A DNA stretch of 48,424 nucleotides from Saccoglossus kowalevskii (Eukaryota; Hemichordata; Enteropneusta; Harrimaniidae), in NCBI RefSeq assembly GCF_000003605.2, contig NW_003116462.1:4781-53204 (forward strand), in the 5' to 3' direction. A model generated the notes under the pieces. It saw nothing but the letters and a program-made list of their open reading frames with translations, was not told the origin of the DNA and searched no databases. The position numbers and the translations under genes are program-made. This document shows positions 14,501-45,994 of this stretch, piece by piece (the stretch's first letter is position 1; each line of letters begins with the position of its first letter).

Positions 14501-17500
14501 CACAATGAACGCTCAACAAAAAAGGATTTACTTCACGTCGCAATCTCGCTGCAACTCCGTTAAGCCGTCCATGCATGACACTCGCCCCATCACTGCCGAA
14601 ACCAAGTAGTTGTCTTGCTTCTATTTTTTCCTGATCTAGTAACATCTGTTTCAGCGTTTCAGTGATTACCAATGCAGTTCCATCCTTTACTGAAACATTT
14701 CTCAAATAACGAGTTCTTGGCTGAAAGTCCGAATCCATAAGTCTCATGTATACAACCAGTTTTTTGGTTACTGATATGTCCGTACTTTCGTTCGTCAACT
14801 TGCTGACAAACTCACTACCATGCAACTGATCTTCAATATTTTTACGAATTACAGTGGCCATGGCATCCTGCATTTCGTCTGCAGTTTGTTGGGTAGTGTA
14901 TGTCGCATATTCACCAGATTTCAATTTTCCCAGCGTGTTTATTCCTTGCAGTTGTAATAATTGTAATAATGATGAATATTTTCGAGTGAATATGTCTTCC
15001 TTTGCGAGCCAATATACACTACACATTGCCAATATAATTGATTCTTCTTTGTGGCTCAGAACACGTGACCTGGCTTTTTGAAAATTACGGCGAAAACAAT
15101 TTCTTGAATGGCTTTTTTGTGATCAGAGCACTGCAAATGTCTCTCCAGAGTGGACGTCCGAAAATTGAAGCATCCTCCGCTACGCGTGTCTGTAAATGAA
15201 TTTGATTTCCCGGTGTCTTGACACCATTTACAAATCATTCCTTTCTCATTGTGACGGATCAACCAATGTGAATATTGTGGTTTTTGTAGCCACCCATTAC
15301 TGAAGTTTCGGACTTTCTGTTTCTTGTGGACCGGTTCGTTCGTATCATCGTGTTGTATGTTCTGGTTGTGTTTCGGTGATGTCAACATCTTCACCAGTGT
15401 CTGCCGTACTTGTAGTAGCTGCCGTACCATGTCCTCCAAAAAAACTTGTGATTCGTTTTTGCCTTGACATTCTTATGACGGTTGACACGATGGACGTAGT
15501 GACAGTTAATGTAAATTCCCCTGTGTTTCGACTTCCAACTACGTTGAACTGCCACAGAGGCACCATAGAAACGAAACTTTGTATCAATCAGTTCGGCACG
15601 CGGCCTCAAAGAAAAAATGGCAACAATTTATTTTAGACCTAATTGATTGTCGCCACGTTGCCATAGTAGCAGACGAAATAGACAAGACATAATGCGAAAC
15701 TGTCATAAAAATCACTTACTCGTGCGGCAATATAAACAATAATGAAGTCAGAATCAAAACATTCCCACGTGCAACCTGATGTTTATATATATATATATAT
15801 ATAAAAAACTAACGCTTCACAACCAGTCCAGGCTTCCGGATAATGGTATCAGTGCGTCCCTGTGACCCCAAACCTTTATTTCTGAGGGACAATGTTTATT
15901 TTTTTGCATGAAATGACGCAAGCCCGCGCTCTGGCTGAAACACTGCACATGGTACTAGCCTTTCAGTTCTGACCGCCTGGTACTAACCCCTGGTACAACA
16001 TACCTGGTACTAATCCTTAACACTAACCATCCAGTTCAACCTCCTGCTAATTATCCCCTGGTACTCACCACCCAGTACAAACCCTCTGGTACGAACAAGC
16101 TGGTACCAACCCTCACAGTACTAACCCCGGGTACTGACCACCCAGTACTAGCCTCTTGGTACTAACCCCCCAGTACTAATCCCTTGGTACTAACCACTGA
16201 GTACTAACCCTCTGGTACCCACCCCCAGTACTAACCACCTTGTACTAACCACCCAGTACTAACCCCCTGATACTACCCACCCAGTACTAACCGCTTGGTA
16301 CTAACCCTCTCAGTCCTAACCACCTGGTACTATCCCTCTGGTACTAACCTCCTTGTACTAACCACCCAGTACTAACCCCCTGGTACTACCCACCCAGTAC
16401 TAACCGCTTGGTACTAACCCTCTCAGTCCTAACCACCTGGTACTATCCCTCTGGTACTAACCTCCTTGTACTAACCACCCAGTACTAACCCACTGGTACT
16501 AACCAGCCGGCGCTAACCCCCTGATACTACCCACCGAGTACTAACCCCTCGGTCCTAACTGCCTTGTACTAACCCCTCGATACTAACCACCCGGTACTAA
16601 CCCTCTGCTACTTACCACCTGGTACCAACCCCCAGGTAGTAACCTGATACTAACACCCGGTACTAACCACTGGTACTAACCACCCAGTACCAACCCCTCA
16701 CTACAAACCAACTGGTACCAATCCCTCGGTAATAACCGCCTGGTATTAACCCCCTGCTACTAACCACCTGGTACCAACCCCCTGGTACTAAGCCCTTGGT
16801 ACTAACCGCTTGGTACTAACTCCTCAGTTCTAACCGCCTGGTACTAGTCCTGGGTATTACCCACCCAGTACTAATCCTTAGCACTAACCACCCATTACAA
16901 CCATCTGCTAATTACCCACTGGTACTAACAACCCAGTACTAACTACCTGGTACCAACACCCCAGTAGTAACTCCGGGTACTAACCACCCAGTACTAATCC
17001 CTGGGTACTAACCAACAGGTAATAATTCTCTGTACTAACCACCCAGTACTAACCACCCAGTACTAACCTGCTGCAGTCAAAATATCACCATCAATAGTAT
17101 CAGTTAGAAGGCAATAAAGGCCATCAATTCCAGGAACGTTCTTCAATAGCTCAGATCGAGGTACCGGATCGTCTGATTTCCACTGTGTCACATGGCATCT
17201 GCACACGACATTGAGACACAAATTATTATAAATATGGTATTCTGATTACATCACTATTCATTCATTGTGTCATTTAAAGTTGTGGAGATAAAATGTAATT
17301 TGAAGCGTCCAGGGCATTGTCGCGTGTGTCTCTCAAATCTTCCGAGCGCCCCGCCCCCATTTTCAATACCCACCCAAAATAAAAACGACCATGCGAACAA
17401 AAAATGCATTCTAACAACAATAACAACAACACTTTAGATTCAACTTTAGCAATGCGTGTGCAAAGGAAGTGTGAAGAAAGTTTGGCAATCAATGTTATAA

Positions 17501-20600: not shown

Positions 20601-22716
20601 AATCCTAATTTGGACTTTTATACTCTGCAGTTATTCAGTATGTGTAATTGTTTGTTTTCGGTTTATTTATTTCAAAAAGAACTCTATGTGTATAGTTTTT
20701 TTTTATACATGTTGTACCTGCTGTCGGGCCAACACTCAAGTTCAATGGCTGTCCATCAAAGGAATTGTCAACTCAACCATGGTTGCTTTATCGGGAAACT
20801 GGAAACTGCCTTCAGAAAGGCTGCAAAAGAGTATGATGGATTGAAAAAACAAAAATGGATTGTGTTTAAATCAATAATAAATGAAATAGAAAATTTCAAA
20901 AAATTATTTAGTTGGTAAAAGTTAAATGTAAATGTGTCAAAAAAGGTAGTTGTATACGCTCACTGCCAAGCCAGCCCCAAGAATGTTCAAACAAATAAAA
21001 TTAAACTTCAAAACTCATTACAGATTGTAAATAAATATAAATACAAGTCGTATAACAATTTAACATTTCTGTCATGGTATGCATTTCTTTACATTTTGTA
21101 ATCCCGATTTAAAGAGATAATTGAAATGGAAAAATACAATGGTCTATTGTAATACCCCTTTTGTTCCTAGGTAATAATGGTATTCGTGCTGCAATGTGTT
21201 TTCATAATTTATTATTATCTAAGTTATCAGTGAATGGGATGGGCATTCTATAATCTTGTGTCCTGAAAATACAATGCTGTATCGCCGTTAATGTTATTCA
21301 GATTGTGGGTTGGGAAATCTCACATTAAATCATGGCTGCGTACATATATAGGTACATTTGTATGCAAAGGGCAGAGTCCATCGTTGATAGCAGTATGAGG
21401 TACTAGCCATGATGTTTTATGGTTTTGGCACAAATCCATGTTAACTGAACCTTTGTTGAATTGTTTTCGCTATAATATTATGAGTTTATTCTGAGAATAT
21501 CACAGATCAGTGGAGACAATGCAGTGAGGGTAACGACCGATGCATAGCTGAGGTCGACATGACCGTATGTATACTGTCTGAGTGTAATCCTCATAATAAC
21601 CTTATTTCTATACATGTCTTTTTCGGTTCAACCACCTGAAGTCGGCCTGTAAATAGTTTTCATGTAGATAGGAGGAAAAAAGTAATACGTTTTGGCAATG
21701 CCACTTGTTATTTATAACAAGCTGCCATATTAGAAATATATATATTTTTTTCATCTTTCAATTATTAAGTTATTATACCTTACTTGGAATATGCATTTTC
21801 TAAAATTCACTGAGAAAAAAGCCTTTCTGCATGGATCAGTTACAAATGTTCGCATAACAACTTTTTTTAATTTATTTTCAGAAATGTAAAAAAAAAGAGA
21901 CAACTTTCAGGTTTTATGAAAAATAAAAGTTCAAATTGGATAAAAATTTGATAAAAATGCTTGTGTGCAACAATTTTGAAAAAAATGTATTTGTTTTGGG
22001 TTCTTTGTTGGGATATATATACATGGAGTAGTTAGCAAAAGGCAATTTTTTTTAAATTCTTGAAGTCAGTGAAAATGATAACATTTTGTAGGAATGAAAA
22101 GTTTGTTTCCTACGACAAGAAGGTCAGTGACTTTTTTTGTTAATTTTTGTCTTCACAAATGCCATAAAATCCTGAAATTGCAAAAAAATAATAATATTAA
22201 TAATTTAAATGGTTTGCAATATATCTTAATACAACAGCAGGTTCACTCCAGTGAGTGAGAGTAATTACGTAATGTTTAAGTTTTATGTTTGTGGGCAGAG
22301 TCAAAGTTAGCATAGGGTAAACTACAGTATTTTTCTAAATAGATCTGTACCCCCTTATTCTTTATTTTTTACAGTGAAAACCACTGAGACTTTGTCATGG
22401 AGATTGCTCTGAAAGTTGTGAGATTAGAGCAGCTGATTACCAACCATGTTTCAAAATGTTGTCTATTACTGTCAGACTGACAGTATGGATGTATTTACAC
22501 ATAGAAATAATGTAAATAGGTCTACAAATTTGATTTGTGATCCCATTATAGCAATAAGCAATCTATTTGCAAAGTATAAGAAATTCCAAAGATATTATGG
22601 TCAATCTTAAAAAAATTAAACATTAGAAAAATCTTAATTTTATGGGTACTTTAAATTACTTTTTGTTATTTAATGGAAAAAATTGATAATTGTGTATTTT
22701 TTTCACTGTTTTTCAG
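17619..22716. other. Divergent intergenic region between GRHPR and the LRR-caspase gene
   Basis: About 5.1 kb between two start codons pointing away from each other. Apart from the LINE fragment I see no gene I can name. A GC-richer stretch at about 19540-20110 could hold a promoter or a 5' UTR exon for either gene, which is inference. A 20610-20918 plus-strand frame ending in a Lys-rich segment is unrecognised. Confidence 0.5.
18034..18340 (-). mobile_element. LINE fragment: C-terminal reverse transcriptase (CR1/L2/jockey-like)
   Basis: Minus-strand pieces match the conserved tail of non-LTR reverse transcriptases: LGVTLDCNINMSPQV in one frame, then QLRRISSICHYL, LVCAFILSRLDYCNCLLVG and LQRVQNSAARLV in another. 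Homology stops around SPLLKSL (near 18034). A frameshift separates the first motif from the rest. It is a dead fragment. Confidence 0.85.
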
Positions 22717-22752
22717 TTAAAAAGATAACACAATTGTATAAAGTTTAACACA

Positions 22753-25700
22753 ATGGAAGAGGAGCCTCAATTGTTGGAACAGCAAGAGCAGAATCAGTTA
22801 TCAGAAGGGGAGGAGCCAAAAGAAGAACAGCCTAAAGAATGTATACTTCGAGGGAAATCGCTCAAATCTGTTCCAGCCGAAGCATGGCAAGACAGGGACA
22901 TTTATAAGCTTAGTTTGCAGGGAAATAAACTTAAAGATTTACCTCCTCAACTCCGTCGCTTGAAAAATCTCCAAGAACTCATACTCTCATTTAATGCATT
23001 TGATAAATTCCCGCTAGTAGCATGTGATTTTCAAAACTTGCGCACTTTGTCGGTGAGCCGAAATCGGTTGAAAACGGTCTCATCACAGATATGTCAATTG
23101 ACTAATTTACAGGACCTGTGGCTGACCGGCAATGTTTTTGAAGAATTCCCGGAAGCATTGTGTTCGGTGGAGCTGGGAAACCTAGAGAAGTTGTATTTGT
23201 ATGATAACAAGATCGCTAATATTCCACAAGGAATAGCTCGTTTAAAAAAACTAAAAGTGTTGAATATCAATAACAATAAGGTCCGAGAAATCCCAGAAGC
23301 ATTCTACGAGCTAAAAAACCTGGAAAACTTCCATGCGAAGGGCAACAAGATTAAGAAGCTGCCTCCAAAGTTTGGCACTGAGCTTAATCAGATTAAGCTA
23401 CTGGAGCTTAATGGTAACCCACTTGTGATACCTTCGCTTGCCGTCTGTCAGCGTGGAATAAACGCCATCAAAGATTTTCAAGATAAAAAAAAAGCTGAGG
23501 CCGAGTCCACCCGCGCCGCCCTGCTTGCAAGACAGCAAGTTGACGGTGTAGCTCAGTTTAGGATGAATAACAACGATGAAAAGATCACAATCAATGGGAT
23601 ACCAAAATTAGTTGCAAATAAAGAAGATGTCTATTGCATTGATGGGATCCCAGCGTATCGAGTCGGAAGTTTGCCTCGAGGTTTGGCAGTCATTATAAAT
23701 AATCATCACTTCAAAACAGATCCATCATGCATAGATGAGAGCCGACAACTTCCTGACCGAGAGGGAACACAAATTGATAAAGGTAAGCTTATTTTCTTCC
23801 ACCATATATTAGCTGTAAACTGCTCATTTTGGGTTGCCACAATATATTCAATTTGAATATTTTTTCAAATTTTTACCCAACTTGGGAAAATGTTTTTTTT
23901 TGCAAGAAATTACGGTAAAATACTTTATTCTGGCTGGAATTCATTTTCGCTGAAAAAACTTTCAGGCGTTTTGTATGGAATTTATTTTCACTGATTTTTG
24001 ACGAGTTGAATGTAAAATATAGCAAAAAAGGTATATTCGCTGGGTTTTATTTTTACTGAATCATTACTTCAGAGAAAATAGCGAAAATTAATTCCAAGCC
24101 TAAATGAAGTATTGTACAGTATTCTTTGTTTATTTATTTTAAATTGCGGATCAAAATATAAATCTGAATGATTGTCTAATTACACTTGTTGTCAAATACA
24201 GTGAAAGGCAGAAAGTGTATCTTAGTTTTCTTTAAAAATATTAAATATTGATAATCAGCTTTCTCAGCTTTTTCAGCTAACTTATTAATATTCAAAATGA
24301 AGTGCTGACTGATTGGATGGTGTTGAACTAACTCATTAATATTCAAAAGGAAGTGCTGGCTTATTGGATGGTGTTGAACTAACTCATTAATATTCAAAAT
24401 AAAGTGCTGGCTGATTGGATGGTGTTGAACTAACTCATTAATATTCAAAAGGAAGTGCTGGCTTATTGGATGGTGTTGAACTAACTCATTAATATTCAAA
24501 ATAAAGTGCTGGCTGATTGGATGGTGTTGAACTAACTCATTAATATTCAAAATAAAGTGCTGGCTGATTGGATGGTGTTGAACTAACTCATTAATATTCA
24601 AAAGGAAGTGCTGGCTTATTGGATGGTGTTGAACTAACTCATTAATATTCAAAATAAAGTTCTGGCTGATTGGATGGTGTTGAACTAACTCATTAATATT
24701 CAAAATGAAGTGCTGGCTGATTGGATGATGTTGAACTAACTCATTAATATTCAAAATGAAGTGCTGGCTGATTGGATGGTGTTGAACTAACTCATTAATA
24801 TTCAAAATGAAGTGCTGGCTTATTGGATTGTGTTGAACTAACTCATTAATATTGATTAGAATTAACCCATGATGATGTTACAATACCATTTCTTGATTAT
24901 TATAAAACCCCAACCAAACAACTGAATAAATCTAAATTTGGAATTAACAAATATATTTATGTTTTAATACAACTCATACCACTGAATTTTAGTTTGTGTT
25001 TTCAACTGACAAATCAAACATATCATCATCCATTCAAATAAAACTTTAAACAAGGTTTAGCTCTGCAACAAATCTCTCAATTCAAAAACTGAAGTGATCA
25101 GTTAAATTCAGTATTCAAATGACATCATTTACTATAGTAACCCTAGCAATTATGTTTACAAAGTNNNNNNNNNNNNNNNNNNNNNNNNNNNNNNNNNNNN
25201 NNNNNNNNNNNNNNNNNNNNNNNNNNNNNNNNNNNNNNNNNNNNNNNNNNNNNNNNNNNNNNNNNNNNNNNNNNNNNNNNNNNNNNNNNNNNNNNNNNNN
25301 NNNNNNNNNNNNNNNNNNNNNNNNNNNNNNNNNNNNNNNNNNNNNNNNNNNNNNNNNNNNNNNNNNNNNNNNNNNNNNNNNNNNNNNNNNNNNNNNNNNN
25401 NNNNNNNNNNNNNNNNNNNNNNNNNNNNNNNNNNNNNNNNNNNNNNNNNNNNNNNNNNNNNNNNNNNNNNNNNNNNNNNNNNNNNNNNNNNNNNNNNNNN
25501 NNNNNNNNNNNNNNNNNNNNNNNNNNNNNNNNNNNNNNNNNNNNNNNNNNNNNNNNNNNNNNNNNNNNNNNNNNNNNNNNNNNNNNNNNNNNNNNNNNNN
25601 NNNNNNNNNNNNNNNNNNNNNNNNNNNNNNNNNNNNNNNNNNNNNNNNNNNNNNNNNNNNNNNNNNNNNNNNNNNNNNNNNNNNNNNNNNNNNNNNNNNN

Positions 25701-28700
25701 NNNNNNNNNNNNNNNNNNNNNNNNNNNNNNNNNNNNNNNNNNNNNNNNNNNNNNNNNNNNNNNNNNNNNNNNNNNNNNNNNNNNNNNNNNNNNNNNNNNN
25801 NNNNNNNNNNNNNNNNNNNNNNNNNNNNNNNNNNNNNNNNNNNNNNNNNNNNNNNAAATAGTTCTTCAAAAAGTTTGAAAAATTCACCATTCATTTTGTG
25901 GAACAATTGTATAATTTATATGCATGAACTTGGACCATGCACAAATTTTGGTGCAAAATTTCTTACTTTTTGTTTTCTAAATATTTTTTTCTTCATGTAA
26001 TTTTTGACCAAATGAATGGTCTTACTATTGCCTAATAAAGGTTTTTTTATTACGGAAAATTTATTTTAGTTTACTCTCTAAAAAATGACAAAAGTTAAAT
26101 TTTTCTTTCAAAACTTTAACCTAAGAGAATGCTACAAATTTTGAGTCACAAATGTTTGCCAAAGTGGTGTTTGTTTGGTTGCCTATAACCCTGTAATTAC
26201 TATGCTGACCTATCAATTTTTACCTGTCATTTTTATTCTCTGTATCAAACTATTACAAATATTAAGAAATTCAAAATTAATGCTTAAATCATCACAGTCA
26301 TTATGCAGTGTGTGTTTAAATTACATATAAAAAAAACAAAAATGTCATACGCTCATTACGTACGTTGTATGGGACCCATATTGAACATGACATGGAGTGA
26401 CGTTTCTGATTCTTCAATTCATGCGTTAATTCTTGCCCACTTACAAACTGTAGTGTCTCTTGGGTTACCTCCATCTTAGGAAAACAATGGCATCATTTCT
26501 TTGCACAAGTCATACTGGGCTTGGCCGGGTGTGAGGCGTTGCCCTGAAAGGAGGCATTTTTTTGTCCCTGCTGTGCTTTTATGAAGCATACAATTGTAGG
26601 CGCTAAGAGGTGTTTGCTATGCTGAGCTGCTGGATTCTATTCAGTACAGTATGCCATAGGGTACCAGTGAATGAAACTCAATCACACTCAATAAGATCGC
26701 AATTCAAGAGGTGAACAAACTTATTTCAGTTGTCAATTAAACCTTGTTGATCACAAAATGTCAAAAATATATCTGATACTACCCGATAAATGATGTATAA
26801 TGTTCTCCAGTAGAATACCACATTGTTTTAGAAAATTTTGCGATTGTTGATTTAATAAGACGTTAGAGTAAAATTCACTAAAAGGGTCTGTGACTAAGTA
26901 CCCTAATGAAATGTACACTGTTACGAATTGCCCTGAAATTTACAAGGGGCTATACCTATCATCAACATCATGGTAATTAAGGACCGGCAGGAATTTTTAT
27001 TTTTTGACTGCAGTGAACATAGAGTTATATTAAATTTCAAATTTTGGTGTGCTGTGGTTGTGTTATTAATTAAAATTGAAACGCACATGAGTGAATTGAA
27101 TACACTTTGCTTGCGAAACTATATAATGTAAATGTGGTTGTGTTTACTGTTATTAATTCAGCTAAATTTGTATTCAGAATTAAAACACATAATTGTGATC
27201 TGTTTTTAAATACACCTAACTTGAAAAACTATATAACTTGAGAGTGGCTGTGTTTACTGTGATTAATTCAGCTAAATTTTAATTTAAAATTAAAACACAA
27301 TATGTGATCTGTTTTAAAGAAATACACTTTACTTGAAAAACTATATAACTTGAGAGTGGCTGTGTTCACTGTGATTAATTCAGCTAAATTTTAATTTAAA
27401 ATTAAAACACAATATGTGATCTGTTTTAAAGAAATACACTTTACTTGAAAAACTATATAACTTGAAAGTGGTTTTGTTTACTGTGATTAATTCAGCTAAA
27501 TTCAGGAAGGGACATTTATGTAGCCTATAATCTCATTGAATTTATGGTCTGGAGTTAAACACAGTAGGTGGTTCCTGATCATCATATGTCGATCCTTATG
27601 GTATTTGTGATAGATGTACATATGGACCACACAGCTTACTCACTTAAAAGAAAAAAACCTAATGAGAGATAACAGCTCGAATATCAACGAAAAAACATTT
27701 TGCATTGTGCAAACCTTTGTATTTCTATTTTCATGTGCATCCAAGGTAAACAAAAGAAGTGTTTGATTGTGATGTAAATTTGATTTACATTTTCCAATTA
27801 GGGAAGACTGTAACAGTTTTGATCACGTTCGTATAGCAGATGTACCGTATTATAATTCGTTATGTCATTAAAATTTATACACAATGTAAAAGTCGCAACT
27901 ATATTATTACATTATATCTCTAAACAAATTCTTCCTCTTGCTGTAATAGATTTTTTTGGACAATGATACGATGAATTGAACCCATGGAAGGGAATCAAAT
28001 TAAATTATATAAAATTGCTTCATCAACAAAAACATTAATTTAAAAACTCGTCCAATTAGCAGATTTTCACAAAATTCTGTAGCAGTGAAATTTTCACAAA
28101 AGATTTGTCTCTGGCTCCTACGTCAACAACTCATCAAATTGTGCAAATCTCGGAAAATAGAAATTTAACAATTTAAATATCTCTGTAGCCAAGAGGTACC
28201 GTATTTGCTCAATTAGAAGCGCATCTCCAATAGAAGTTCCTATAAAACAAAAATCACATTTTATACAGTAAATCATTAAATTGAAACACTTGTATAATTA
28301 ATGTAAACACATGCGTTACTAATAAAGCAAGTATGGTATGTGAATTCAGGCTTTAAACCACATCTTTAATGTTACCTCAATGCATGTGTGTGTTGATTTG
28401 TGTAACCATGTAGGTGAATTGCTGAATAAAATGATAAAATACTGGTTATACTAATTATCACTTGACTCGAATTAAATTGCACCAATTTACTAATTGAGTG
28501 AGTGATTTATTCTTCTGTTCTATGTGACATGTTGCATTAATGGTAACTAATAGCTGTGTGTGGTAATAAATTTGTTTTATTGTCTTGAGATAAAGGTTCA
28601 TACTTGGGTGATATAATACCCCTTAGCAATGTGTAAATAAACATCACCCCATTAGGGAAAATTTACCTACCCTTCTGCATTGCAGAAATGTACATTGTAT

Positions 28701-31700
28701 TATTGTTGCCATGGAAACCAACATTCGTTATTTTTGTCATGTTTTTCTTTGTATCTATTACATGAGATGACATATTTTTTTCGTGAATAAAAAAGACGTA
28801 ATCTGAGCATGCAACCGCAAATTTAGATTTGAGTTATCAGACATTTTGCATTTTGTTACAATTTTGTTTTGTCCCAATTTGGAATACCGTTGCATTTTAA
28901 GACATTGAAGAATTTTGAGTCATGCTGAAAATCCTTTGGAAATTGCTTCCCAGCATCAACATTTTACATTTTTTCTTCTAAATCATTTTTTCAAGATGGT
29001 GGTTAATCATAGTTGTCTTAGTAACCATATGTAAATGTGAATTACTCCTAGTACTAAATTGTTTTGTACTCGTAAGACAGTCAAAATAAAATCTAGTTCA
29101 TAGCATAGTTTTCCTTACACAGACAAGTACCAGCATTATGGCTGCCTATATATAGAGCCATCAGAATACCGATTTTACTTACTTTACCTAACCTTTTCAC
29201 CACCAGACTTTCTTGCCCAAATTTTTCTGCACTTTTTTCTTACATTCTTGAAATGAACCTTAATTTTGGAGCCAACTGACAAAATTTGAGTCAATTTTCG
29301 GTTTTCACTCCAAAAAATTGGCTAATCTTCTGAAAGAAAGTGAAGACTATAAACAGGACTATTTTGTGAATTTTTGATGAAAAGAGGGAACTGGTGGTGA
29401 AAAGGTTAATGCCATACACTATAGCTAAAGAAGGGGATATCTTAAATTGACCCCACCTCTCCAAATGTGTGTTGCTGGGAAGAAAGTGAGTTCACTTTAA
29501 GTATTAACAAGTATCTGTCACAATATATACTAATAATAAAATAACAAAGAAGTTAAAGTTTTTATGTCGTGATCATGTATTATATCGGCGTATGTATCCG
29601 GGCATGTTTGAATGACCTGGGATTAAGCAGTCCTTCATTTTCACCGACCTGGGTCATTATCATAAATGGCAAAAGATTACAATGAGCATGTGTAATGAGT
29701 TGGAGAGGTACACTCTAGATCATCCTAGCTACCAATGCAAGATGTAATCCCATGTCAGATAACGTGCAGCATATTCACCGTACTAGCTTACGTAAAAGCC
29801 CTCTTAACAAGTTATCGGTAGTACTATCACATAGTAAGCATGGTGTGCGACATTCATCCAAACAACCCATTCAACCCCATCCTGTTTCTTCTAAATAATA
29901 TTTGTCTTTCTAAAATAGAAGTTTTGATGAGAATGCATAATGACTGAAAAATGATAATTTTATAATATACAATTTTCCGATTGCGGTTAATTTTTACATC
30001 AGTGACTTCAATACGTATTTTAGACATATATGTAGTTGTGATTTTACCAAAGAGAGCTTACTTGTCTTGTATTTAAAGGGCGGTGGTCGTTGCGCTGCAC
30101 ATGTGCGACATTTGTGTGGATAAACATTGATTTTCCCACAATCCAATGCACTCTTCTAATGGAAATCATAAGTCTGAGGTTTGGCCTAGGGGCAACTTGC
30201 ACTAATTACCGCCGATGACCTATTCGATACCATCCAATCCTCAAAAAATATTTAATTAAAGCTTGGTAACGTCTCAATTTGTACTTGACTTTTAAAAAAT
30301 GGCGCGCATTTGCTTTCAATTTTTTGTAATTGTGTTCTTTTTAAGCTAGCTGGTTTCCCTTATTCATTTCCAGTCGATTAAAATTACACACTGTTGTAAT
30401 CTTACATCACATATTAAATTTTGTTGACTCTCAGTTTATTTTTACCTCTTTATTCAACACGTTACTATTATTTTTAAATTATTATATCACTGCATTCAAT
30501 CTCTAATGTCATAGAATGAATACTACATGTACCTAGTATTACTGTTATTTCTAAACATTGAATTGCTTTCCACCTGTCAATCAAAAATTTCGTCAACATA
30601 ATGTTTTGTTCATTTACAACAAAAATAACAATTACAATTATGTTTTCCATATTAATAAAATTATGTTTTCCATATCAACAAAATTATGTTTTCAATATTA
30701 ATAAAATTATGTTTTCCATATTTATAAAATTATGTTTTCCATATTAATAAAATAGTGAATAATACGTAGATGAACGAAGTTAGTCAATAGTCTATGTGCA
30801 TCGCTTATTTTCTTTTATGTGCATTCAACTCACTATTAATGACTGTCTGAGACCGGCAAGATCGTATATCCAATCACAATAATTCGTGATTTGTTCTAGA
30901 TTCATTCATGAAGAAGGTTTTTGTAATTTTTATACAAATTTAATAAGATAACAAAGTGCAGATCAACAATTAGGTTTTGATAAATTAAATTCTAAGTTTA
31001 AAAAGATTTAAAATTTAATTAAAAAGCTTCAAATATATGATTGAAGGTATGTGTTTAGAGTAGCAGCCGCATGTCTCACATGTTTCCATGGCAACAGCAT
31101 TCAGACATCATCAGCAATTCGTCTTCACTTCTAATTTTCATTGCAGTTTTTTTGTCACACATACTAGTTCAGCCAGCTGTAATTTTGCCTATCTAAATTT
31201 CAGTGCAACATTTTTCACAAGAATAATTTATATATATATATTTTTGTTTATATTTTAATCAAGACCTGTACACAATGAAATTATTGAAAATTACAAACAA
31301 TTTTGCGCAATTTTTTGAGTAGGAAATAGTATGATTATTTATGATTGATTTACGAATACCGGTAAGTTTTGGGGGAATTTGATCTCAAATCAAATCCAAC
31401 ACCTGAGATATAATCAATAAAATACACTGTAAACCATTCAATCTTTGCTGCCAAAAATTTTATCGCATTTATTGAAGCATATTTTTTGTGAAAGTCAATG
31501 ACATAAAACCCCAGACAAATTTTCACCGCTAAAACACTTTTTACTGATTCACAAAATTTTCGCTCACAAAATTAATGGTTAACAATTGATTACTGTAAAA
31601 CACGTCATTTTAGCTAATTTAGCTAACTTGTAATTTTGCTAATTCAAGATGTCGCTAATTTAGAATAAAGTATATTCTCACAATGAGATTGTTGGCATTT

Positions 31701-34700
31701 TAGCTAAATTAAGATTTAGTTAATTCATGCATGGAGTCAAATTTGCTAAAATGGCATGGAGCTATTTCAATGTTTTTTAAGGTAGTTAAGTCAGAACACC
31801 TGTGGAATTGGATCAAGGGTTGACATTTGATTTCCCATGACATTGTCCAAAGAAACAAAATATTAATGTACATGTATTAATTAAATTAACCTATAAAATA
31901 GAGATTTCATAATGTTGTCAGATTTCACAACCCTATGCTAATAAAGGTCACAGTCTCAACCATGAAATTGGCGCCAAATCAACTCTGGCCTTATTGATTC
32001 ATTTCAATAGTGTTGATCAGCAGAGATATAATAGATAACCAGTCGAGTGTTTTGATGACAATGAACACCAGCTGCGGCTCTATTTTCAAGGCATTGAGAC
32101 ATTGACAATGGCGTTTCAATTACACCGAACAGTTGCCATGCTCCCTCGAAGCTGACCACAGCTACTCTGTGCTGATATCGCATTTCTACAAAAGCAGCTT
32201 AAACACCTAACTGTTTGTGTGTAGCAACTAGTATTGGGAAAGATGACCTTTGATGAACTGTTTAGTGATTACAGAGTTCACAGGGTGTCCCAAATACAAT
32301 AGGACATTATTATTGTTTGTCTTTTCTTTTTAAATGCTTATAAATGCTGTAAAAGCATTAAATTTCACACTGGTATTTATTATCACCATTTTGATCATTT
32401 AAGATTCAAATTCACAAATTTCCAGGCAAACTCATTGTAACCTTGATTACTATTCACATGACTTTAATTAAATAAATTTGATTTAATTTATCTGCGGAAA
32501 ATAGGAAATTGAAAAAACAGTGAAACATTAATGATGTTACAGTTTGTTTGAAAATATCTTTATTTATATCAAAGAATGTTTCTAATTTATTTATTTATTT
32601 TCTGTAATGAGATCTTGTTTCACAAACTCTCATGAATACAGTGAATAAGACGTATGTACTGTAATGAACTGTTTCCAAATATCCTAAGGGGGTTTTAGAC
32701 CACTATACAAATAACCAGTGTTAGAGTAAACAAGTTCTAAGTCAAAAATGTATCAATGTCTTCATTGTTGTTGAACTGTTCATAATGACTATTCAGAAAA
32801 TAAATTACTTTCAATTCTGTTAATCAAGAACAATTAAGAACTTTCTTGCTGCTTTTAATACACTATCATCAGTGATTATTGGTTTGAAATAGGTTTGAAC
32901 TACATTACTCTGAAGTGTGTATGCATAGCTAGCAACACAATGAACAACCACTCCCTGTACTCAACAGTACATTAAGTCTGCCCAAAAGTTTATAAAATCT
33001 TGCCTACTGTAAAATACTTTATTTTCGCTTGCAACTTCTTTTTCGCTGAAAGAATGATATAGTCCAGCTAATATTCCTTTTTTCCTATATTTTACATTCA
33101 ACTTGTCAACAATCAGTAAAATAAATTCCATACAAAACACCCAAAAAGTCTTTTCAATGAAAATTAATTCCAGCTAAAATAATGTATCTTACAGTATGTT
33201 GACCCAGAATAAAGTTCCACTGACCTTTATTACCTATACTGAATGCCCCAATTCCAACCTAGCACAGTTTGAGATTAGCCTAGAATCAGGAGCTCTTACA
33301 ATAAGGTATTGATTTCAAAAACCAGTGTCTAGTAACAAATATGAATGCAGTAGTAGGATTGCCTGTATTGATAGCTGTTAACACCAGTAGTCATATAATA
33401 GATTACGTTATTCAATGTTGCAAGTGTTGAAATGTATTGCCTATTGTGTGGGTGACAGTATTAAAATCAAAGGAAAAAGAAAATGTTTTTTAAAACGTTA
33501 TAGTCGCCGGGCATGACTGCGTAAATGTGAGTCCCATGCAACATGTAAAGAACATTGTTTGTTTACAATACTCACAATTCAATCACATGTGAAGACAACA
33601 AGTATTTTAATAGAAGCATTGTGTTAGGTAATAATTGTAGAATTTAAGTTCCGTCAGAAGAAAATGTTTTTATGTTTTGTAAATGAACCAGTTTAAAAGA
33701 CTTTTATTTGAATTTTATCTGATCTTTGACATAGGAATGTTGTCCATGCTTTTGTTTACAAGTAGGATAGCTATATAGTAAAGCAAATCAGTAAAATATT
33801 ACCCTGGGAGTTTAAACAGTTTTATTAACTTTACATTATATATCAAAAGACTCCCTAGGCCAGTGAGGAAACCTTGCAAAGGTATATATTGAAGTAAAGG
33901 TAAACCTTGCTGAGAAAAAATAAAAGTACATGTCTATACCTGTATGTGAACAAATTTGAGTTAAATTTTTTCCACATCCTCAGATTTTGCCAAGGGTTGA
34001 TTATTCAACTGATTTAATTCCTTGATACATAAAATCTGTTATTATAATTAATTTATGCACCAATATGGGTGTGTATTTATATTATTACCCACAGCTCACT
34101 GCAGTCAGTTCAAAAAAAGAATTAACTTAATAGGTTTCACCATATAGAATTTGGATCTGATTTGTGTAAATGTCATGTTTGGTCGTTGATATATCGAGAC
34201 TTATTATTCCACTGTAAATAATGTGTCTGAACTTTTCATTCATAATGGTGTAATGCATCAGTAAGGTTGCCATAACAACTATAGAAATATATTCCTTGTG
34301 TTGTTTTCTTTCCATCGCCATCCAAGTGAATCTTACAGAGTCTCAATTAGGTCCTGACAAATAAATCACAATCTCAACATATAATTCAGTACCAGGTGGT
34401 GATGTTATTATCAACTGTCTCAAAAATGTCACACTGTATTTGGGAATTTTCTAGAGATCTCTTTGATGATAGAATTTTTCAACCAATCAGAGTCTACTTT
34501 ACTAAAATAAAACTTCATTGTCCTGCTCACATTTTTTTTTTATTCCAGGTCATGATTGGCTGTAAATAAACCGATTTTGAGTTCATGTTATTGCAGTGTA
34601 AACACAGTATGGTGTTAGATTTCTCAATTTGCCAACAGGAGAAACAGTTTTGATAGAGGGAATACAATGTTAATAATATTTAGTATACACTTTGTAATCA

Positions 34701-37657
34701 TAATAGCATGTAATTTAGTTTTGAATGACATATTACGAAATAATGTGTTTATAATTGTTCTTGGTGTCATTTGATTTAAAAATAGTGACTGCATGATTTG
34801 TACGTTTGAAGATATGTACGTGTGCCAGACACATTTTAGTTCTATAGTTATGCCTTATTATTTATTATTTTATGCATTGTAAATAAATTAAAGAAATTGC
34901 TTTGAACACTATTGTCGATACGCAACAGAGATATGTTTTTGTTTGGTAATCAGTTTCATATATTTTGAAAGATGAAACTGAGTAATTATTCAAAGAACAA
35001 AATTGCTAGTGTATTGAAATGTTTACCAAACCCCCACCGATTATTTACAGTATTCAAACGTTTGTTTTTTGTCTGCAGGGAAGCTTTTGTCAATCGCATA
35101 TCACTTTTCTCGGTGTCACTAAGAATGTAATCAATTCCTTGTTAGTGCGATCAAATTTGATTTATTTTTTACTTTGTGTAAATGTAGCGTGAATGCAATC
35201 TCCCCTGCTATGGAATCGAGTTACGTTCTCTAAGTGAGCATTGTCGTCATCAATATCTTGTTCTAAACTCACAAATTTATAAATGTCCATAGATGAAAAC
35301 AAATTTTTATTTTATATTTACTTTATATTTCGTAGATTGAACCTAAATTTAGTTAGAATATTTCTTAAGTTTTTATATATTTTATTAATCGCAATAATTT
35401 TCCCTACAACCTCTTTAAACAATAATAATTGTTATGTAAATTAGGTAGACAAAGTTGTACACTGGAAAATACTATAATGAGCTCCGACATAATCTTTAGT
35501 TTGGGTTACAAAAAATCTTGTTCTCAAAAATCTAAGCAGGAGGGTCGTCACCTGCGCACACGTGGGAATTGAATCCCAAGCGACGATAACAGCACATGCT
35601 AAAAACGCAAAGGCTCGTGGGCAGACGCTTGTTTGTAAATAATGACACGCTATGGCCATCTGATGCTTGCGCAGGTGACAACTCTCCTGTTTTAAGTAAG
35701 TTAAGTTTCAATTTCAAATAATTTTCACTGCTAGAAATTTTCAGGAATGTCTGGCATTTGTGAAGACGAAATTACGCTAAAGTCACTGAAACCCAGAAAA
35801 ATTTGTTACTGCTACAAATTTTCTCTGACTCAGGAAATTCACAAAAATTTATCTCTGGCTATCAGTGGATACATACACTGGAAGAACAATTTTCAGCGGT
35901 TGTATTTTATGATAGGCTTGTTTTTATGCAACGCAATCAGCTTTAATATTTGTTGCAATTGTATTTCTACATGTGACAATTGTGCAAACAGCTTGTTGAA
36001 GAGTGCTGAACATTTGTTGATTGTTTACTAAAAATTTGTAACATTTTCACACACCAACTTAATTCATAAACCTCATTACTAAGATGGCATCTGCAGTAAT
36101 TCAAATGCTCACCTGACAACAGCAAATATTTGCAAGGATATCAATTTTAAGTACAATTTTTCTTGTTTTTGTTTTTTTTTCCAGAAAAACTTCAATCAAT
36201 TTTCAGTCAGTTAAAGTTTGAAGTCCAAGTTCATGAAGATCTAAGTTCTGATGATTTGATGCGCGTACTGATACAAGTGAGTCAAGAAGATCATGAAGTG
36301 TACGACATGTTTGTTTGTTGTATCCTGACGCATGGTTCAGCGGGTGTGGTTTATGGTAGTGATAGCATTGCTGTCAAGATCAGTGACATCACAAGTACTT
36401 TTGTTTCTTCTCGATGTCCAACTTTGAGAGGAAAACCAAAGCTCTTCTTTATTCAGGTTTGTTGTTAATACAATTTTTTGATAATTTGCCTATACCCAAC
36501 TAGGAAAAGCCACAACACTAATCTGCTAAAACAATTGCCCAAAAACAGTAGTCAGTGAAACTAAGCTAAAGATATCAACATGTTACTTAATAGTGACATG
36601 ACAAAAAAAGTTATCGTAAGCCAAGCAAATATGCATTGCTGTGAATACAGTCTTATGCCTAAACGTTAAACACACATGAATGATAAATATACATAGAAAA
36701 ATAATAAATGTTTAATAAACTATAAAGAAAAATATAGTGAATATACACTGAAGTCAGCTAAAGCATGTATGTATACTCATAAACCTAAATGACATTGGCT
36801 GTTCTAAAAAATACATATAGACTGCCCTCTATGGCAAAACTTTGCATTTCTTTCGTTGTACTTATGTACTGATAATTTTGATAACTACTGTAGAATACTT
36901 TATTTTCGCTTGGAATTTATTTTCGCTATTTTCGCTAAAGGGATGATTCCGTGAAAATAAAATCCAGCGAATATACTTTTTTTCCTATATTTTACATTAA
37001 ACTCATCAAAAATCAATGAAAATAAATTCCATACAAAATACCCAAAAAGCCTTTTCAGCGAAAATTAATTCCAGCGAAAATAAAGTATTCCACAGTATTT
37101 AGTTTTTATCATATATCTAGCTATAGTTGCAGCCATGTATGAATATTCTTCTAATTCAGTGACAATTAACTTGAAGGATTGGGTTATTTTTTTGACCAAT
37201 AAGCCTGAGTCAATCGACGTGCCAAGAACATAAACAAAATAGGGCGTGTCTTCACAAATACTTTCTTTTCCTCATTAATTCAATTGTTCATTATTGCGAA
37301 TAATTTTCCATTTTTTTCTTTATATTATAGGCATGTCAGAATGAAGAGAGTGAGAAACCTGAAGGTTTGCAGGAAGATGCGGTTCATGTCAACAATGTGA
37401 TCCCGGATCAGGCTGATTTCTTACTCGGCTATGCAACCGTACCGGGATTTGTGTCATACCGACACACAACCGATGGTTCGTGGTACGTTGGTGCACTGGT
37501 GAAGGCATTAGACAAGTATTATAACCGACTGCATCTACTCGACATTCTGACAATCGTGAATGACACTGTCGCCCAAGAGAGTTCAGATGGCTTCGTTCAA
37601 GTCCCTGCGCCACAGTATACGCTGAGAAAAAGACTGTATTTGGATGCTCCAATGTAA
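22753..37657 (+). CDS. LRR-caspase fusion protein (caspase-8-like protease domain with N-terminal leucine-rich repeats)
   Basis: Coding exons 22753-23782, 36185-36456 and 37331-37657; junction phases 1 and 0, all GT-AG; 542 codons. An in-frame TAA precedes the ATG, and an acceptor (CAG ending at 22716) implies an upstream untranslated exon. Residues 1-30 are Glu/Gln-rich. Residues about 30-235 form seven to eight 23-residue LRRs (LxxLxLxxNxLxxLP type). Residues 240-306 are a linker. The caspase domain runs 307-542: RGLAVIINNHHF (Arg309, S1 pocket), REGTQID, CCILTHG (catalytic His393), KPKLFFIQACQ (catalytic Cys436), IPDQADFLLG, SYRHTTDGSWY (Arg478, S1 pocket) and a caspase-8-like end TLRKRL. 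No DED, CARD or death domain is seen. LRRs and the p20 start share one exon. Likely a cysteine protease of cell death or innate immunity with an LRR sensing or scaffold module; the biological role is inference. Confidence 0.93.
23911..24121. mobile_element. MITE family C, copy 1 (LRR-caspase intron 1)
   Basis: A palindromic 211-bp element beginning TACGGTAAAATACTTTATTC and ending with the inverted counterpart, via AGCGAAAATTAATTCC, to TACAGTA. It starts only 129 bp after the exon 1 donor. Inner sequence (TTGTATGGAATTTATTTTCA) matches the other two copies in reverse orientation. Confidence 0.82.
24282..24850. repeat. 51-bp minisatellite, about 11 copies (LRR-caspase intron 1)
   Basis: The tandem unit contains GTGCTGGCTGATTGGATGGT, then GTTGAACTAACTCATTAATA and TTCAAAA. 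Two main variants alternate in part of the array (AAATAAAGTGCTGGCTGATT and AAAGGAAGTGCTGGCTTATT). Because 51 is a multiple of three, the minus strand stays open for over 200 codons with a 17-residue repeat. It lies in an intron, and I do not think that frame is a gene. Confidence 0.95.
25165..25855. other. Assembly gap (691 N)
   Basis: An unbroken run of N inside the first intron of the LRR-caspase gene. Reading frames that appear to cross it are artefacts. Confidence 1.
25856..27054. other. Intronic AT-rich DNA, nothing recognised
   Basis: No coding motif, RNA gene or repeat family was identified in this part of the first intron. Confidence 0.5.
27055..27500. repeat. 112-bp tandem repeat, about 4 copies
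   Basis: The block ATTAATTCAGCTAAATT recurs at 27152, 27262, 27374 and 27486 (spacing 110-112 bp). Each is preceded by ACTATATAACTTGAGAGTGG-like and TGTGATCTGTTTT-like blocks. The middle two copies are almost identical. Confidence 0.9.
28197..28338. mobile_element. MITE family B, copy 1
   Basis: A 142-bp element with inverted ends: TACCGTATTTGCTCAATTAG at the left and the complement of CTAATAAAGCAAGTATGGTA at the right. It shares its terminal blocks and its length with 37914-38055. Confidence 0.78.
28339..30636. other. Intronic DNA, nothing recognised
   Basis: AT-rich first-intron sequence of the LRR-caspase gene. I see no exon, RNA gene or named repeat in it. Confidence 0.5.
30637..30751. 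repeat. 23-bp tandem repeat, 5 copies
   Basis: Five consecutive units of ATTATGTTTTCCATATTAAT plus AAA with one to three substitutions each. Confidence 0.95.
30752..33004. other. Intronic DNA, nothing recognised
   Basis: AT-rich. A stretch near 31590-31750 is rich in TTTAGCTAA-like palindromic blocks and could be an eroded MITE, but I could not define its ends. Confidence 0.45.
33005..33196. mobile_element. MITE family C, copy 2 (LRR-caspase intron 1)
   Basis: A 192-bp element starting TACTGTAAAATACTTTATTT and ending with the inverted form (AATTCCAGCTAAAATAATGT, then TACAGTA). Inner blocks CCTATATTTTACATTCAACT and AAATTCCATACAAAACACCC match copy 3. Confidence 0.88.
33197..35536. other. Intronic DNA, nothing recognised
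   Basis: AT-rich first-intron sequence without identifiable exon, RNA gene or repeat family. Confidence 0.5.
35537..35689. mobile_element. MITE family A, copy 2 (LRR-caspase intron 1)
   Basis: A 153-bp element. The left end CAGGAGGGTCGTCACCTGCG is mirrored at the right end, whose complement reads CAGGAGAGTTGTCACCTGCG. CAG ends suggest a non-autonomous hAT, but a clean target duplication was not found. It matches 9167-9317. Confidence 0.85.
36886..37097. mobile_element. MITE family C, copy 3 (LRR-caspase intron 2)
   Basis: The best preserved copy, 212 bp. TACTGTAGAATACTTTATTT with TCGCTTGGAATTTATTTTCG at the left is mirrored by AATTAATTCCAGCGAAAATA and AAGTATTCCACAGTA at the right, giving terminal inverted repeats of more than 30 bp. 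Confidence 0.92.
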
Positions 37658-38905: not shown

Positions 38906-40556
38906 AATTGGGTCTATCCGATATGCAAACATATGAGATTACTTAGTTTAAATCTTAGTCCATACTTTGTGTAGCATGAACACTACAAATGTAGGTATGT
39001 TTGTCTCTAAGATAACACCCTCCAGTATCTTCAAACTGAAAGGAGCAGAAAAGTGAGGGCAGGAAACCTACTTTTAATATATCATGCTTTTAGATATAAA
39101 AGCAGCAGCATATTTTGTTTTTAGTTTGTTCTGGGAGGGATTTTCACATATTTACAAAGTTGGAATGCAACTTTAATGTGTAAATCTAGCATTGTAGTAG
39201 TATGTGTATGTGCTATGAATATGAGCAAAGTAGAAAAATGAAATACCAATTTAAAATAAATTGATTTTATATTTTTATTTTTTCAGTAAAAAATTTACAC
39301 ATGGTTATAATTTCATATTGTATTTCTAAAAATTATTGTTAATTTGGATATGTATATTTGGATAACTAGATCATAAATTCAAGAAGGTATTGTCTTCTGT
39401 ATGACAAATAAACATGACATTAATATTTTTTGTTACATTTTGTAGCTATGAACATTTTTGTTGAACAGTATTTTTGACAATAATTTTAAGATGATTTTAA
39501 CTAACTATATATTGATATTGTTTAATTTTTTTATTAATTTCTTCCTTATTTAAAGCTTTGAAAGCCTATTTTTGCCACTTTTCGCAAAATAAACCTGCAT
39601 AATTTTGTCCTCAATATTTCAGATCAAGACCATTATTCAAAGTGTAATTGTCAACATTTTGTTCAAAATTAACAAAGAAATTATAGAATATACACAAACA
39701 ATTGGTTGCTGTTCAAACATTGATGAAGGTTCATTAATCATCGCATGTGTAGTTACGTTGAGAGAACAGACGCCACACAGTGATGCATGAATTATTTCTC
39801 GCATATTGTAAAAGTCTCTTGTGACCAATTTCAAACACAATCCAACATGACAGGACACAATGCAATGCAACAACTACGACAATTTAATATTCTAAGTTGC
39901 AAAATCAGACAACAGCAACAACCTGAATAACTATATCATATAGCGTTTTCCTCTCATATTAAGAGGATATACGTAAAGGAAAATATTGCTGTATTTCAAG
40001 GTGCCAAATTAATTGTTAATAAACATAGTAAAAGTGGTGTACAACCTTCTCTTCCCATGATATTTTGGTATTTTCAAAAATGGAATTCATTTGCATATCA
40101 ATATCAAAACTTGTGAACACTTCTGTATGGTCTAAAATAATATATTAAAATAATATATTTTAAAATGTTATTTTAGCTTTCAAAAGCATTACAAATATTT
40201 GGAAAGGGTTCAAATGAATTCCACTCCTATTTTGGGAGGGGGAGGGGGTGATTTGTGCTGCATGTTTTATATTTGTATCATTTTAATGTAATTCACTTTG
40301 ATTTGGTAAGAGACAAATCAATTAATTATTCATGAATTTTCTGGGTGAGGGCAAATTGCCAAATTTTCTAACTAGAAAACGTTCAATAACATGTAAACTA
40401 AAATTGACTTTTCTGAAATCAATCATAAAAATTACCGGTAGCAGCAATTTACAGAATGTTAAATCGCAGTCTGTATAGCCCCACTTGTATGTTTCATTTT
40501 ACTTGAATAAAATAAAAAAATTTTAAACCACCTTTCATTTTTTTTATTAAAAGCCA
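38906..40556. other. AT-rich spacer, nothing recognised
   Basis: No coding motif or RNA gene identified. Short A/T tracts dominate. Confidence 0.5.
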
Positions 40557-41775
40557 TAGAATGAGATCCTATAGAAAACCATAACCGGTATAGAATATGC
40601 CACTCTTGACAAAAGTGAATTACACAGAATGAGATCCTATAGAAAACCAGATTCCCTATAGAATACAACACTCTTGAGGAAGATGAATTACATAGAATGA
40701 GATCCTATAGAAAACCAGAACCTCTATAGAATACACCACTCTTGATGAAAGTGAATTACATAGAATGAGATCCTATAGAAAACCAGAACATCTATAGAAT
40801 ACGCCACTCTTGATGAAAGTGAATTACATAGAATGAAATCCTGTAGAAAACCAGAACCCCTATAGAATACAACACTCTTGACGAAAGTTAATTACACAGA
40901 ATGAGATCCTATAGAAAACCAGAATCTCTATAGAAAACACCACTCTTGAGGAAAGTGAATTACATACAATGAGATCCTATAGAAAACCAGAACCTCTATA
41001 GAGTACAACACTCTTGAGGAAAGTGAATTACACAGAATGAAATCCTGTAGAAAACCAGAACCCCTATAGAATACAACACTCTTGACGAAAGTGAATTACA
41101 TACAATGAGATCCTATATAAAACCAGAACCCCTATTTAGTACAACACTCTTGAGGAAAGTGAATTACACAGAATGAGATCCTATAGAAAACCAGAACCCC
41201 TATAGAGTACAAAACTCGTGAGGAAAGTGAATTACACAGAATGAAATCCTATAAAAAAAAACAGAACCTCTATAGAATACAACACTCTCGGGGAAAGTGA
41301 ATCACATACAATGAGATCCTATAGAAAACCAGAACCTCTATAGAATACACCACTCTTGAGGAAAGTGAATTACATAGAATGAGATTCTATAGAAAACCAG
41401 AACCCCTATAGAATACAATACACTCGAGGAAGGTAAATCACAAAAGATGAAAATCCTGTAGAGAACCAGAATCCCTATAGTTTACACCATTCTTGTGTTA
41501 AGCAAAAACTTTTGGAATGTGATCCTATTGAAAACCAGAATTCAACACCCCGTGGAAGGTGAATGCCATAGAATGAAATCCTATAGAATATCAGAACCCC
41601 TATATGATACCTCACTCTTGTGGAAAATGAATGCCACAGATTGTGATCCTATTGAAACCAGAACTCTTAATATGAATGCCATGGAATGTGATTATAATGA
41701 AACTTGGGGAAGGTAAATGCTATTGAAGGCGATCCTATAGAAAACCAAAAGTTCTATAGAATACACCACTCCAAT
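40557..41775. repeat. 68-bp minisatellite, about 18 copies
   Basis: The unit holds ATGAGATCCTATAGAAAACC, AGAACCTCTATAGAATACAC and CACTCTTGAGGAAAGTGAAT. Unit starts at 40561, 40629, 40697 and 40765 show exact 68-bp spacing. Copies near 41450-41720 are shortened and more diverged, as expected at an array edge. Confidence 0.95.
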
Positions 41776-43765: not shown

Positions 43766-44150
43766 CTGGTCTGTCCAGTGCCACTGTTGAAATAATATTT
43801 TCTCACCGACTCACTGGTCTACCCAGTGCCACTGTGGAGATAATATTATCTCACTGACTCACTGGTCTGTTCTGTGCCACTGTTGAAATAATATTATCTC
43901 ATCGACTCACTGGTCTGTTCTGTGCCACTGTTGAAATAATATTTTCTCACCGACTCACTGGTCTACCCAGTGCCACTGTGGAGATAATATTATCTCACTG
44001 ACTCACTGGTCTGTTCAGTGCCACTGTTGAAATAATATTATCTCATCGACTCACTGGTCTGTTCAGTTCCACTGTTGAAATATTGTTATATCATCGACTC
44101 ACTAGTCTACCCAGTGCCACTGTGAAGATATTATTTCTCTCTGACTCAGT
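43766..44150. repeat. 48-bp minisatellite with trimeric higher-order structure, 8 copies
   Basis: The unit holds CCACTGTTGAAATAATATTA, TCTCATCGACTCACTGGTCT and GTTCAGTG. Variants follow the order a-b-c-a-b-c over the first six copies (a: TATTTTCTCACCGAC; b: GTGGAGATAATATTATC; c: TATTATCTCATCGAC), giving a 144-bp higher-order period. The last two copies are diverged. Confidence 0.94.
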
Positions 44151-45829: not shown

Positions 45830-45994
45830 ATACTTACCTGGCGTAGGGGTTAACCGTGATCAAGGAGGCGGTTCCCTCAGGGAGAGGCCTTCCCATTGCA
45901 CTCCGGCTGGGCTGACACCTGCGATCGCCCCAAATGTGGGCGACTCGGGCGCATAATTTATGTTAGTGGGGGACTGCGTACGCGCTATCCCCTG
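45830..45994 (+). ncRNA. RNU1: U1 spliceosomal snRNA
   Basis: 165 nt, almost the human length. The 5' end is ATACTTACCTGGCG, the stretch that pairs with 5' splice sites. Loop I carries the U1-70K site (GATCAAGGAGGC region). Loop II retains the U1A-binding ATTGCACTCC. The Sm site ATAATTTATG lies before the final stem, and the 3' stem-loop is GTGGGGGACTGCGTACGCGC with TATCCCCTG. All functional parts are intact, so it is a real gene rather than a pseudogene. Confidence 0.98.

What the first reader, a model, noticed from the sequence alone, without database searches (positions are those of the whole stretch)
22753..37657. Leucine-rich-repeat domain fused to a caspase-8-like protease
One protein carries about eight LRRs and a complete caspase domain with Arg309, His393, Cys436 and Arg478 all in place. 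Caspases of the 8/10 type normally carry death-effector domains, and LRRs normally reach caspases only through adaptors, as in PIDD1-RAIDD-caspase-2 or NLR-ASC-caspase-1. Here sensor-type repeats and protease are joined without a visible death fold, which suggests a one-component signalling protease. I do not know of this architecture as a described family. The fusion is seen directly because LRRs and the start of p20 share one uninterrupted exon; the sensing role is inference.
Basis: partly seen in the sequence, partly recalled or inferred. Interest (0 to 1): 0.93.

Follow-up and report, generated by a model that had tools for sequence, protein, structure and literature searches.

The report
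LRR-caspase fusion gene in a hemichordate
This marine invertebrate gene joins a leucine-rich-repeat binding domain directly to a caspase protease, one of several such genes in the same genome; this rare combination was already reported in amphioxus in 2008, so it is a new member of a little-studied kind rather than a new kind.

Summary
The 12.4-kb join is supported by an intron of the same position and phase in six other caspase loci of this genome. No death fold is visible.

Novelty fails as claimed: LRRs-caspase hybrids were named in amphioxus in 2008 and proposed as direct recognition-to-apoptosis links (PMC2575513). New here: the genome looks hemichordate (mitochondrial code); five LRR-caspase loci were found; LRRs accompany both caspase-8-like and caspase-3/7-like domains (one clade rejected, p-AU 0.0001); and no DED or CARD match lies on any of 14 C14-bearing contigs.

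Most likely a cytosolic one-component initiator: LRRs bind a ligand or partner, caspase domains dimerise, the linker is cut (candidate Asp450). Sensing, activity and expression are untested. The motif reads QACQN, not QACxG, so reduced activity is a live rival.

The parts
22753..23782 (+). Coding exon 1: ATG, acidic N-terminus, about eight LRRs, linker, first 35 residues of p20 with Arg309 (23677-23679); ends in phase 1 at a GTAAG donor
22840..23472 (+). LRR region, about residues 30-240 (LRRD1/SHOC-2-like LRRs)
23677..23782 (+). Start of the caspase p20 subunit within exon 1 (PRGLAVIINNHHF...GTQIDK)
   Evidence: Pfam C14 from residue 309; alignment to caspase-8
23783..36184 (+). Intron 1, 12.4 kb, phase 1, GT-AG; holds a 691-base N run (25165-25855) and a 51-base tandem array
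   Evidence: same position and phase in six other caspase loci
36185..36456 (+). Coding exon 2: rest of p20 with His393 (36331-36333)
37331..37657 (+). Coding exon 3: Cys436 (37334-37336), Asn438 (37340-37342), intersubunit linker with Asp450, p10 with Arg478 (37460-37462), stop
22715..22728 (+). Likely 5' splice acceptor (CAG ending at 22716) followed by an in-frame TAA at 22726-22728, upstream of the ATG
   Evidence: sequence

Best explanation
A real, spliced gene for an intracellular LRR-caspase, one of five LRR-caspase loci found in what is probably a hemichordate genome. Shown: the domains, the catalytic residues, the exon borders, the conserved intron position, the paralogues, and the presence of LRRs with two different caspase clades. 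Inferred: with no signal peptide (judged by eye) and no death fold, the LRRs do what a DED or CARD prodomain does elsewhere. They bind a ligand or partner and bring caspase domains together; dimerisation permits cleavage in the intersubunit linker (candidate GLQED450-A); the active protease then cuts downstream substrates such as the caspase-3/7-like enzymes in the same genome. The LRR module spread among caspases partly by exon shuffling.
For: In-frame three-exon model with all four catalytic/S1 residues; C14 8e-57 and LRRs; caspase-8 best match. Phase-1 GT-AG intron at the same codon in seven loci: window, C1602, C3950, C4306a, C3005, C1141, C3553b. LRR exon upstream of caspase exons on the same strand at C1602, C3950, C4306a and C1763, with a possible in-frame splice at C1763. 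Tree: 100/100 branch between caspase-8-like and caspase-3/7-like rows, LRRs on both sides; all five LRR rows as one clade rejected, p-AU 0.0001; the nearest relative of the C4306a LRR exon in the genome search is that of C1763, 46% over 132 aa. No DED or CARD match on the 14 C14-bearing contigs; the Death matches on two of them are on the opposite strand. The 2008 amphioxus paper argues the same shortcut logic and cites caspases activated by artificial dimerisation.
Against: No transcript or protein evidence. QACQN is off the usual QACxG, which all seven other loci with a readable QAC motif keep. No ligand, oligomer or activity data. Some sister loci look damaged: C3950 lacks 71 bases of its caspase exon relative to the window, and C1763 has AWEN where others have SWRN, so its S1 arginine is replaced. 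At C4306a and C1763 the LRRs sit in a separate exon, so fusion there rests on order, strand and phase. C3005/C1141, close kin of C4306a, show no LRR exon in the upstream DNA I held; even the four LRR rows on the caspase-8 side are rejected as one clade (p-AU 0.00125).
Confidence: 0.6

Rival explanations
1. Weak or dead protease acting as a regulator, in the manner of cFLIP: the LRRs target it to a complex, and the QACQN caspase domain dimerises with active caspases and tunes them.
For: Asn438 replaces the usual Gly; the seven other loci with a readable QAC motif have QACQG (four), QACKG, QACRG and QACEG, the last in a damaged copy. The same genome carries two tandem caspase-like genes with Arg for the catalytic His and no Cys at the aligned catalytic position (C3553a/b), so inactive caspases exist in it.
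Against: Cys436, His393, Arg309, Arg478 and the HG glycine are intact; a linker Asp is present. Asn is a common replacement for Gly in tight turns (recalled).
Confidence: 0.22
2. The LRRs are not a sensor of foreign or danger ligands but a docking or autoinhibitory domain for a host partner (for example a Ras-family GTPase or PP1, as recalled for SHOC-2/RSU1-type LRRs), used in development rather than immunity.
For: Solved relatives of the LRRs include LRRD1, SHOC-2 and Ras suppressor protein 1; no signal peptide is apparent by eye.
Against: LRR number and type differ strongly among the five loci, which fits diversifying recognition better than one conserved partner; not decisive.
Confidence: 0.3
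3. Two genes or an annotation artefact: an LRR gene ending near 23856 next to a separate caspase whose first exon is elsewhere.
For: The LRR reading frame runs on to 23856 without splicing; the gap to the next exon is 12.4 kb with a 691-base N run.
Against: The LRR exon itself contains the first 35 residues of p20 in frame, and the donor at that codon is conserved in six other caspase loci.
Confidence: 0.03

Closest known systems
Amphioxus LRRs-caspase hybrid genes (PMC2575513, Genome Biol 2008)
   Same: LRRs joined directly to a caspase domain, proposed as a direct link from recognition to apoptosis.
   Different: Those are stated to keep QACXG; the window gene has QACQN. Their sequences are not held here, so homology of the fusion was not tested. 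The animal here appears to be a hemichordate.
Caspase-8/10
   Same: Caspase-8 is the closest solved caspase (172 bits); the stretch between INNHxF and GTxxD aligns without a gap to caspase-8; caspase-8 side of the tree.
   Different: No DEDs; LRRs instead.
PIDD1-RAIDD-caspase-2 (PIDDosome)
   Same: LRR sensor feeding a caspase (recalled); this genome also has 11 LRR-then-Death pairs on 8 contigs (hand count).
   Different: Here LRRs and protease are in one protein, with no death domain and no need of an adaptor.
NLR-ASC-caspase-1 inflammasome
   Same: LRRs upstream of a caspase (recalled).
   Different: No NACHT, PYD or CARD in the window protein.

Membership tests
Caspases (Peptidase C14) | His-Cys dyad and the two S1 arginines | tested here: met
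   His393, Cys436, Arg309, Arg478, aligned to caspase-8
Caspases (Peptidase C14) | Full-length C14 domain (p20 and p10) | tested here: met
   profile 1-233 of 233, E 8e-57
Caspases (Peptidase C14) | QACxG active-site motif (typical, not invariant) | tested here: not met
   QACQN; the catalytic Cys is present
Caspases (Peptidase C14) | Proteolytic activity after Asp | not testable with these tools
   no assay
Caspase-8/10 | Tandem DED prodomain | tested here: not met
   no DED at E <= 1 in the protein, none listed on contig C1008
Caspase-8/10 | Protease domain on the caspase-8 side of the family | tested here: met
   only caspase-8, -3 and -7 served as references
Amphioxus LRRs-caspase kind | LRRs directly joined to a caspase domain in one protein | tested here: met
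Amphioxus LRRs-caspase kind | QACXG motif, stated for all of the reported ones | tested here: not met
   QACQN against PMC2575513 Discussion; filed by architecture only
Amphioxus LRRs-caspase kind | Common descent of the fusion | not tested
   amphioxus sequences not held
NLR | NACHT ATPase | tested here: not met
PIDD-like LRR-death-domain proteins | Death domain | tested here: not met

The most novel reading that the evidence does not exclude
In this lineage LRR modules have taken over from death folds as the general caspase prodomain: the LRR exon is a shuffled cassette attached to both initiator-type and executioner-type caspases, no DED- or CARD-caspase remains, and a direct LRR-to-protease system stands in for the adaptor-based pathways of vertebrates.
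Probability: 0.15. Interest if true: 0.8.

Novelty: new member of a known kind. Interest (0 to 1): 0.45.

Why it matters
Vertebrate sensing-to-death pathways rely on separate sensors, adaptors and caspases. A one-protein LRR-caspase would be a natural experiment in how little is needed, and would allow direct tests of whether LRR binding alone can drive caspase dimerisation. The finding extends a proposal made for amphioxus to what is probably a second deuterostome phylum, shows it as a small gene family rather than a single oddity, and gives sequence evidence that LRR exons have become joined to more than one caspase clade.

Tried and rejected
Two separate genes: rejected, because p20 begins inside the LRR exon. 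Processed pseudogene: unlikely, introns are present and no internal stop is found. Hidden death fold: in-frame stop between the 5' acceptor and the ATG, no DED/Death/CARD listed on C1008; a weak AG at 22742-22743 was not formally excluded as an acceptor. Single origin of LRR-caspases in this genome: rejected on the caspase tree. That tree used 15 rows (12 from this genome, 3 references), several with X for unread parts, and left out C3323a, C4306b, C2351, C1465 and C2107 (fragments, a damaged copy, or not caspase proper by eye). The tested groups were defined by architecture, but the first tree had been seen. The four LRR rows on the caspase-8 side are also rejected as one clade (p-AU 0.00125), because C3005/C1141, in which I saw no LRR, nest among them. 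Absence of DED/CARD caspases is a lower-bound result, exon by exon, in a fragmented assembly. The species was not identified; PMC11175523 and PMC11148506 (passages) did not help.

Papers: ten searches over the held open-licence PMC library. PMC2575513 is the only paper in which I saw LRR-caspases described. The other papers that hold one of the LRR phrases use them differently: PMC6553700, PMC11033252 and PMC3437474, one passage each, are about NLRs, CARDs or NLRP3. The four other papers hold only 'TNFR-caspase' and were seen as listings. PMC11508797 (12 of 13 passages) speaks of NLRs. PMC3196919 on 45 amphioxus caspases has no occurrence of LRR (12 of 17 passages; section 11). In PMC2246300 both LRR occurrences are in the reference list; in PMC2779465 'leucine-rich' occurs once, about NLRs; in PMC8195603 (12 of 14 passages) none describes an LRR-caspase. 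All other papers in the listings were not opened. The supplements of PMC2575513 were not read (no look-ups allowed).

Full report
What was checked. The window is G000:C1008:4781-53204 of a 572-Mb assembly with 4,830 contigs. Exons 22753-23782, 36185-36456 and 37331-37657 on the + strand have GT/AG borders and join in frame to 542 aa. Pfam finds Peptidase_C14 over its full profile (8e-57, residues 309-537) and several LRR families, with no death-fold family among those listed at E <= 1. The closest solved caspase is caspase-8 (172 bits; best caspase-3 149); a different caspase of the same genome (C3323b, hand-joined from exon pieces) matches caspase-3/7 at up to 250 bits, so the contrast is real. 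The solved proteins nearest to the LRRs are LRRD1, then bacterial LIC proteins and SHOC-2.

Is the join right? The LRR exon already contains the first 35 residues of p20. Its donor, in phase 1 after the codon that follows GTQID, is found at the homologous codon in six other caspase loci of the genome (C1602, C3950, C4306a, C3005, C1141, C3553b). The second window intron lies just before the catalytic Cys (FFIQ|AC); at C1763, C3323b, C2720 and C128 the open frame also leaves homology after FFIQ, which suggests the same intron there. This is a multi-intron gene, not a retrocopy. An in-frame TAA lies between the probable 5' acceptor and the ATG.

Which animal? The mitochondrial contig C4830 (17,037 bases) reads ATA as Ile (six ATA codons in the aligned COX1 stretch: three at Ile, two at Val, one at Leu, none at Met), TGA as Trp (four of five), AAA at conserved Lys sites such as LGERKALGYMQARKGP in ND1, and its few AGA codons (four in the six further genes tabulated, none in the COX1 stretch) at sites that look like Ser (the comparison for ND1, CYTB and ND5 is recalled). 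By recall, this combination is that of hemichordates: echinoderms read AAA as Asn, chordates and most protostomes read ATA as Met, cnidarians and sponges read AGA as Arg. The species was not identified.

A family, not a single gene. A six-frame C14 search gave 28 exon-level matches on 14 contigs. LRR exons lie upstream of caspase exons on the same strand at four further places. C1602: LRRs and p20 start in one exon, like the window. C3950: likewise, with fourteen LRR motif hits, but the caspase exon lacks 71 bases after CILSHG relative to the window and changes frame; I left it as it is. C4306a: LRR exon, p20-start exon, caspase exon. C1763: LRR exon with a phase-compatible splice to the p20 exon, but AWEN where related loci have SWRN, so probably impaired. 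C3005 and C1141 (near-identical caspase exons) are close kin without an LRR exon in the upstream DNA held: about 8 kb for each, to which 5.2 kb were added for C3005; the only tblastn hit was one of 20 bits, E 0.65, in L034. C3553a/b have Arg for the catalytic His and no Cys at the aligned catalytic position.

How the LRRs got there. In a tree of 15 caspase rows a 100/100 branch separates caspase-3/7-like from caspase-8-like rows; the window, C1602, C3950 and C4306a are on the caspase-8 side and C1763 on the other. One clade of all five LRR rows is rejected (p-AU 0.0001), and so is one clade of the four on the caspase-8 side (p-AU 0.00125). Yet in a genome search with the C4306a LRR exon the nearest relative is that of C1763 (46% over 132 aa; the next, C257, 33%). 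The reverse was tested only among four LRR exons, where C4306a is also nearest to C1763. The simplest reading is movement of an LRR exon between caspases, or repeated fusion from one LRR pool; losses of LRRs would also explain part of the pattern. Relatives of the window's LRRs include loci in which a Death match follows on the same strand within 10 kb: 11 such pairs on 8 contigs (C1345 twice, C3896, C2440, C3738, C479, C1602 twice, C4172, C2966 twice), counted by hand, without gene models. Two of them lie within 25 kb of the C1602 LRR-caspase, on the opposite strand. The single best LRR relative of the window (C2443, 38%) has no Death match on its contig.

Death folds. DED gave 67 matches, CARD 13 and Death 55. 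None of the DED or CARD matches is on any of the 14 C14-bearing contigs; the Death matches on two of them (C1602, C2351) are on the opposite strand. So no conventional death-fold caspase was seen. This is a lower bound: the search is exon by exon, weak domains are missed and contigs end.

Mechanism. Shown: architecture, residues, introns, paralogues. Inferred: cytosolic location (acidic N-terminus, no signal peptide, by eye), LRR-driven clustering, dimerisation, cleavage at a linker Asp (Asp450 in GLQEDAV is the best candidate), and downstream executioners. The main doubt is QACQN: Asn438 stands where the seven other loci with a readable QAC motif (C1602, C3950, C4306a, C3005, C1141, C2351 and the damaged C4306b) have Gly. 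It may be tolerated, or it may mark a weakened enzyme.

Known or new. [quoted passage not shown] sections 8 and 10). Phrase searches found no other paper with this architecture; the three other LRR-phrase hits were opened and are about other things. The window gene is therefore a new member of that kind by architecture; whether it descends from the same fusion was not tested.

Noticed in passing
window 45830-45994 (+): U1 spliceosomal RNA gene, full-length Rfam match, 142 bits.
   Followed up: no
window 254-328 (-): tRNA-Val, anticodon AAC.
   Followed up: no
window 9003-9920 (-): Two exons of a D-2-hydroxyacid dehydrogenase (2-Hacid_dh_C), probably glyoxylate/hydroxypyruvate reductase (name recalled).
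   Followed up: partly
window 13332-15472 (-): hAT-type transposon remnants: dimerisation region and zf-C17orf113 above cut-off, DUF4371 below its cut-off.
   Followed up: partly
window 7692-8289, 12485-12781, 16055-17068, 24277-24853, 40555-41664, 43766-44148: Many tandem arrays of different unit length (39, 22, 14, 51, 68 and 48 bases).
   Followed up: no
L036, L037 (G000 C3553): Two tandem caspase-like genes with Arg for the catalytic His and no Cys at the aligned catalytic position; possible cFLIP-like regulators.
   Followed up: partly
L030 (G000 C3950) and L035 (G000 C4306, second copy): An LRR-caspase locus with a gap and frame change in its caspase exon, and a rearranged caspase copy with stops in the matched stretch.
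   Followed up: partly
L051 (G000 C1359), G000 C257, C3354: LRR exons similar to that of the C4306a LRR-caspase on contigs without a C14 match; what they are joined to is unknown.
   Followed up: no
G000 contigs C1345, C3896, C2440, C3738, C479, C1602, C4172, C2966: Eleven same-strand LRR-then-Death pairs within 10 kb, suggesting a PIDD-like expansion (hand count).
   Followed up: partly
L046, L047 (G000 C4830): Mitochondrial contig with COX1 on the strand opposite to COX2, COX3, CYTB and ND1 (gene names by eye).
   Followed up: no
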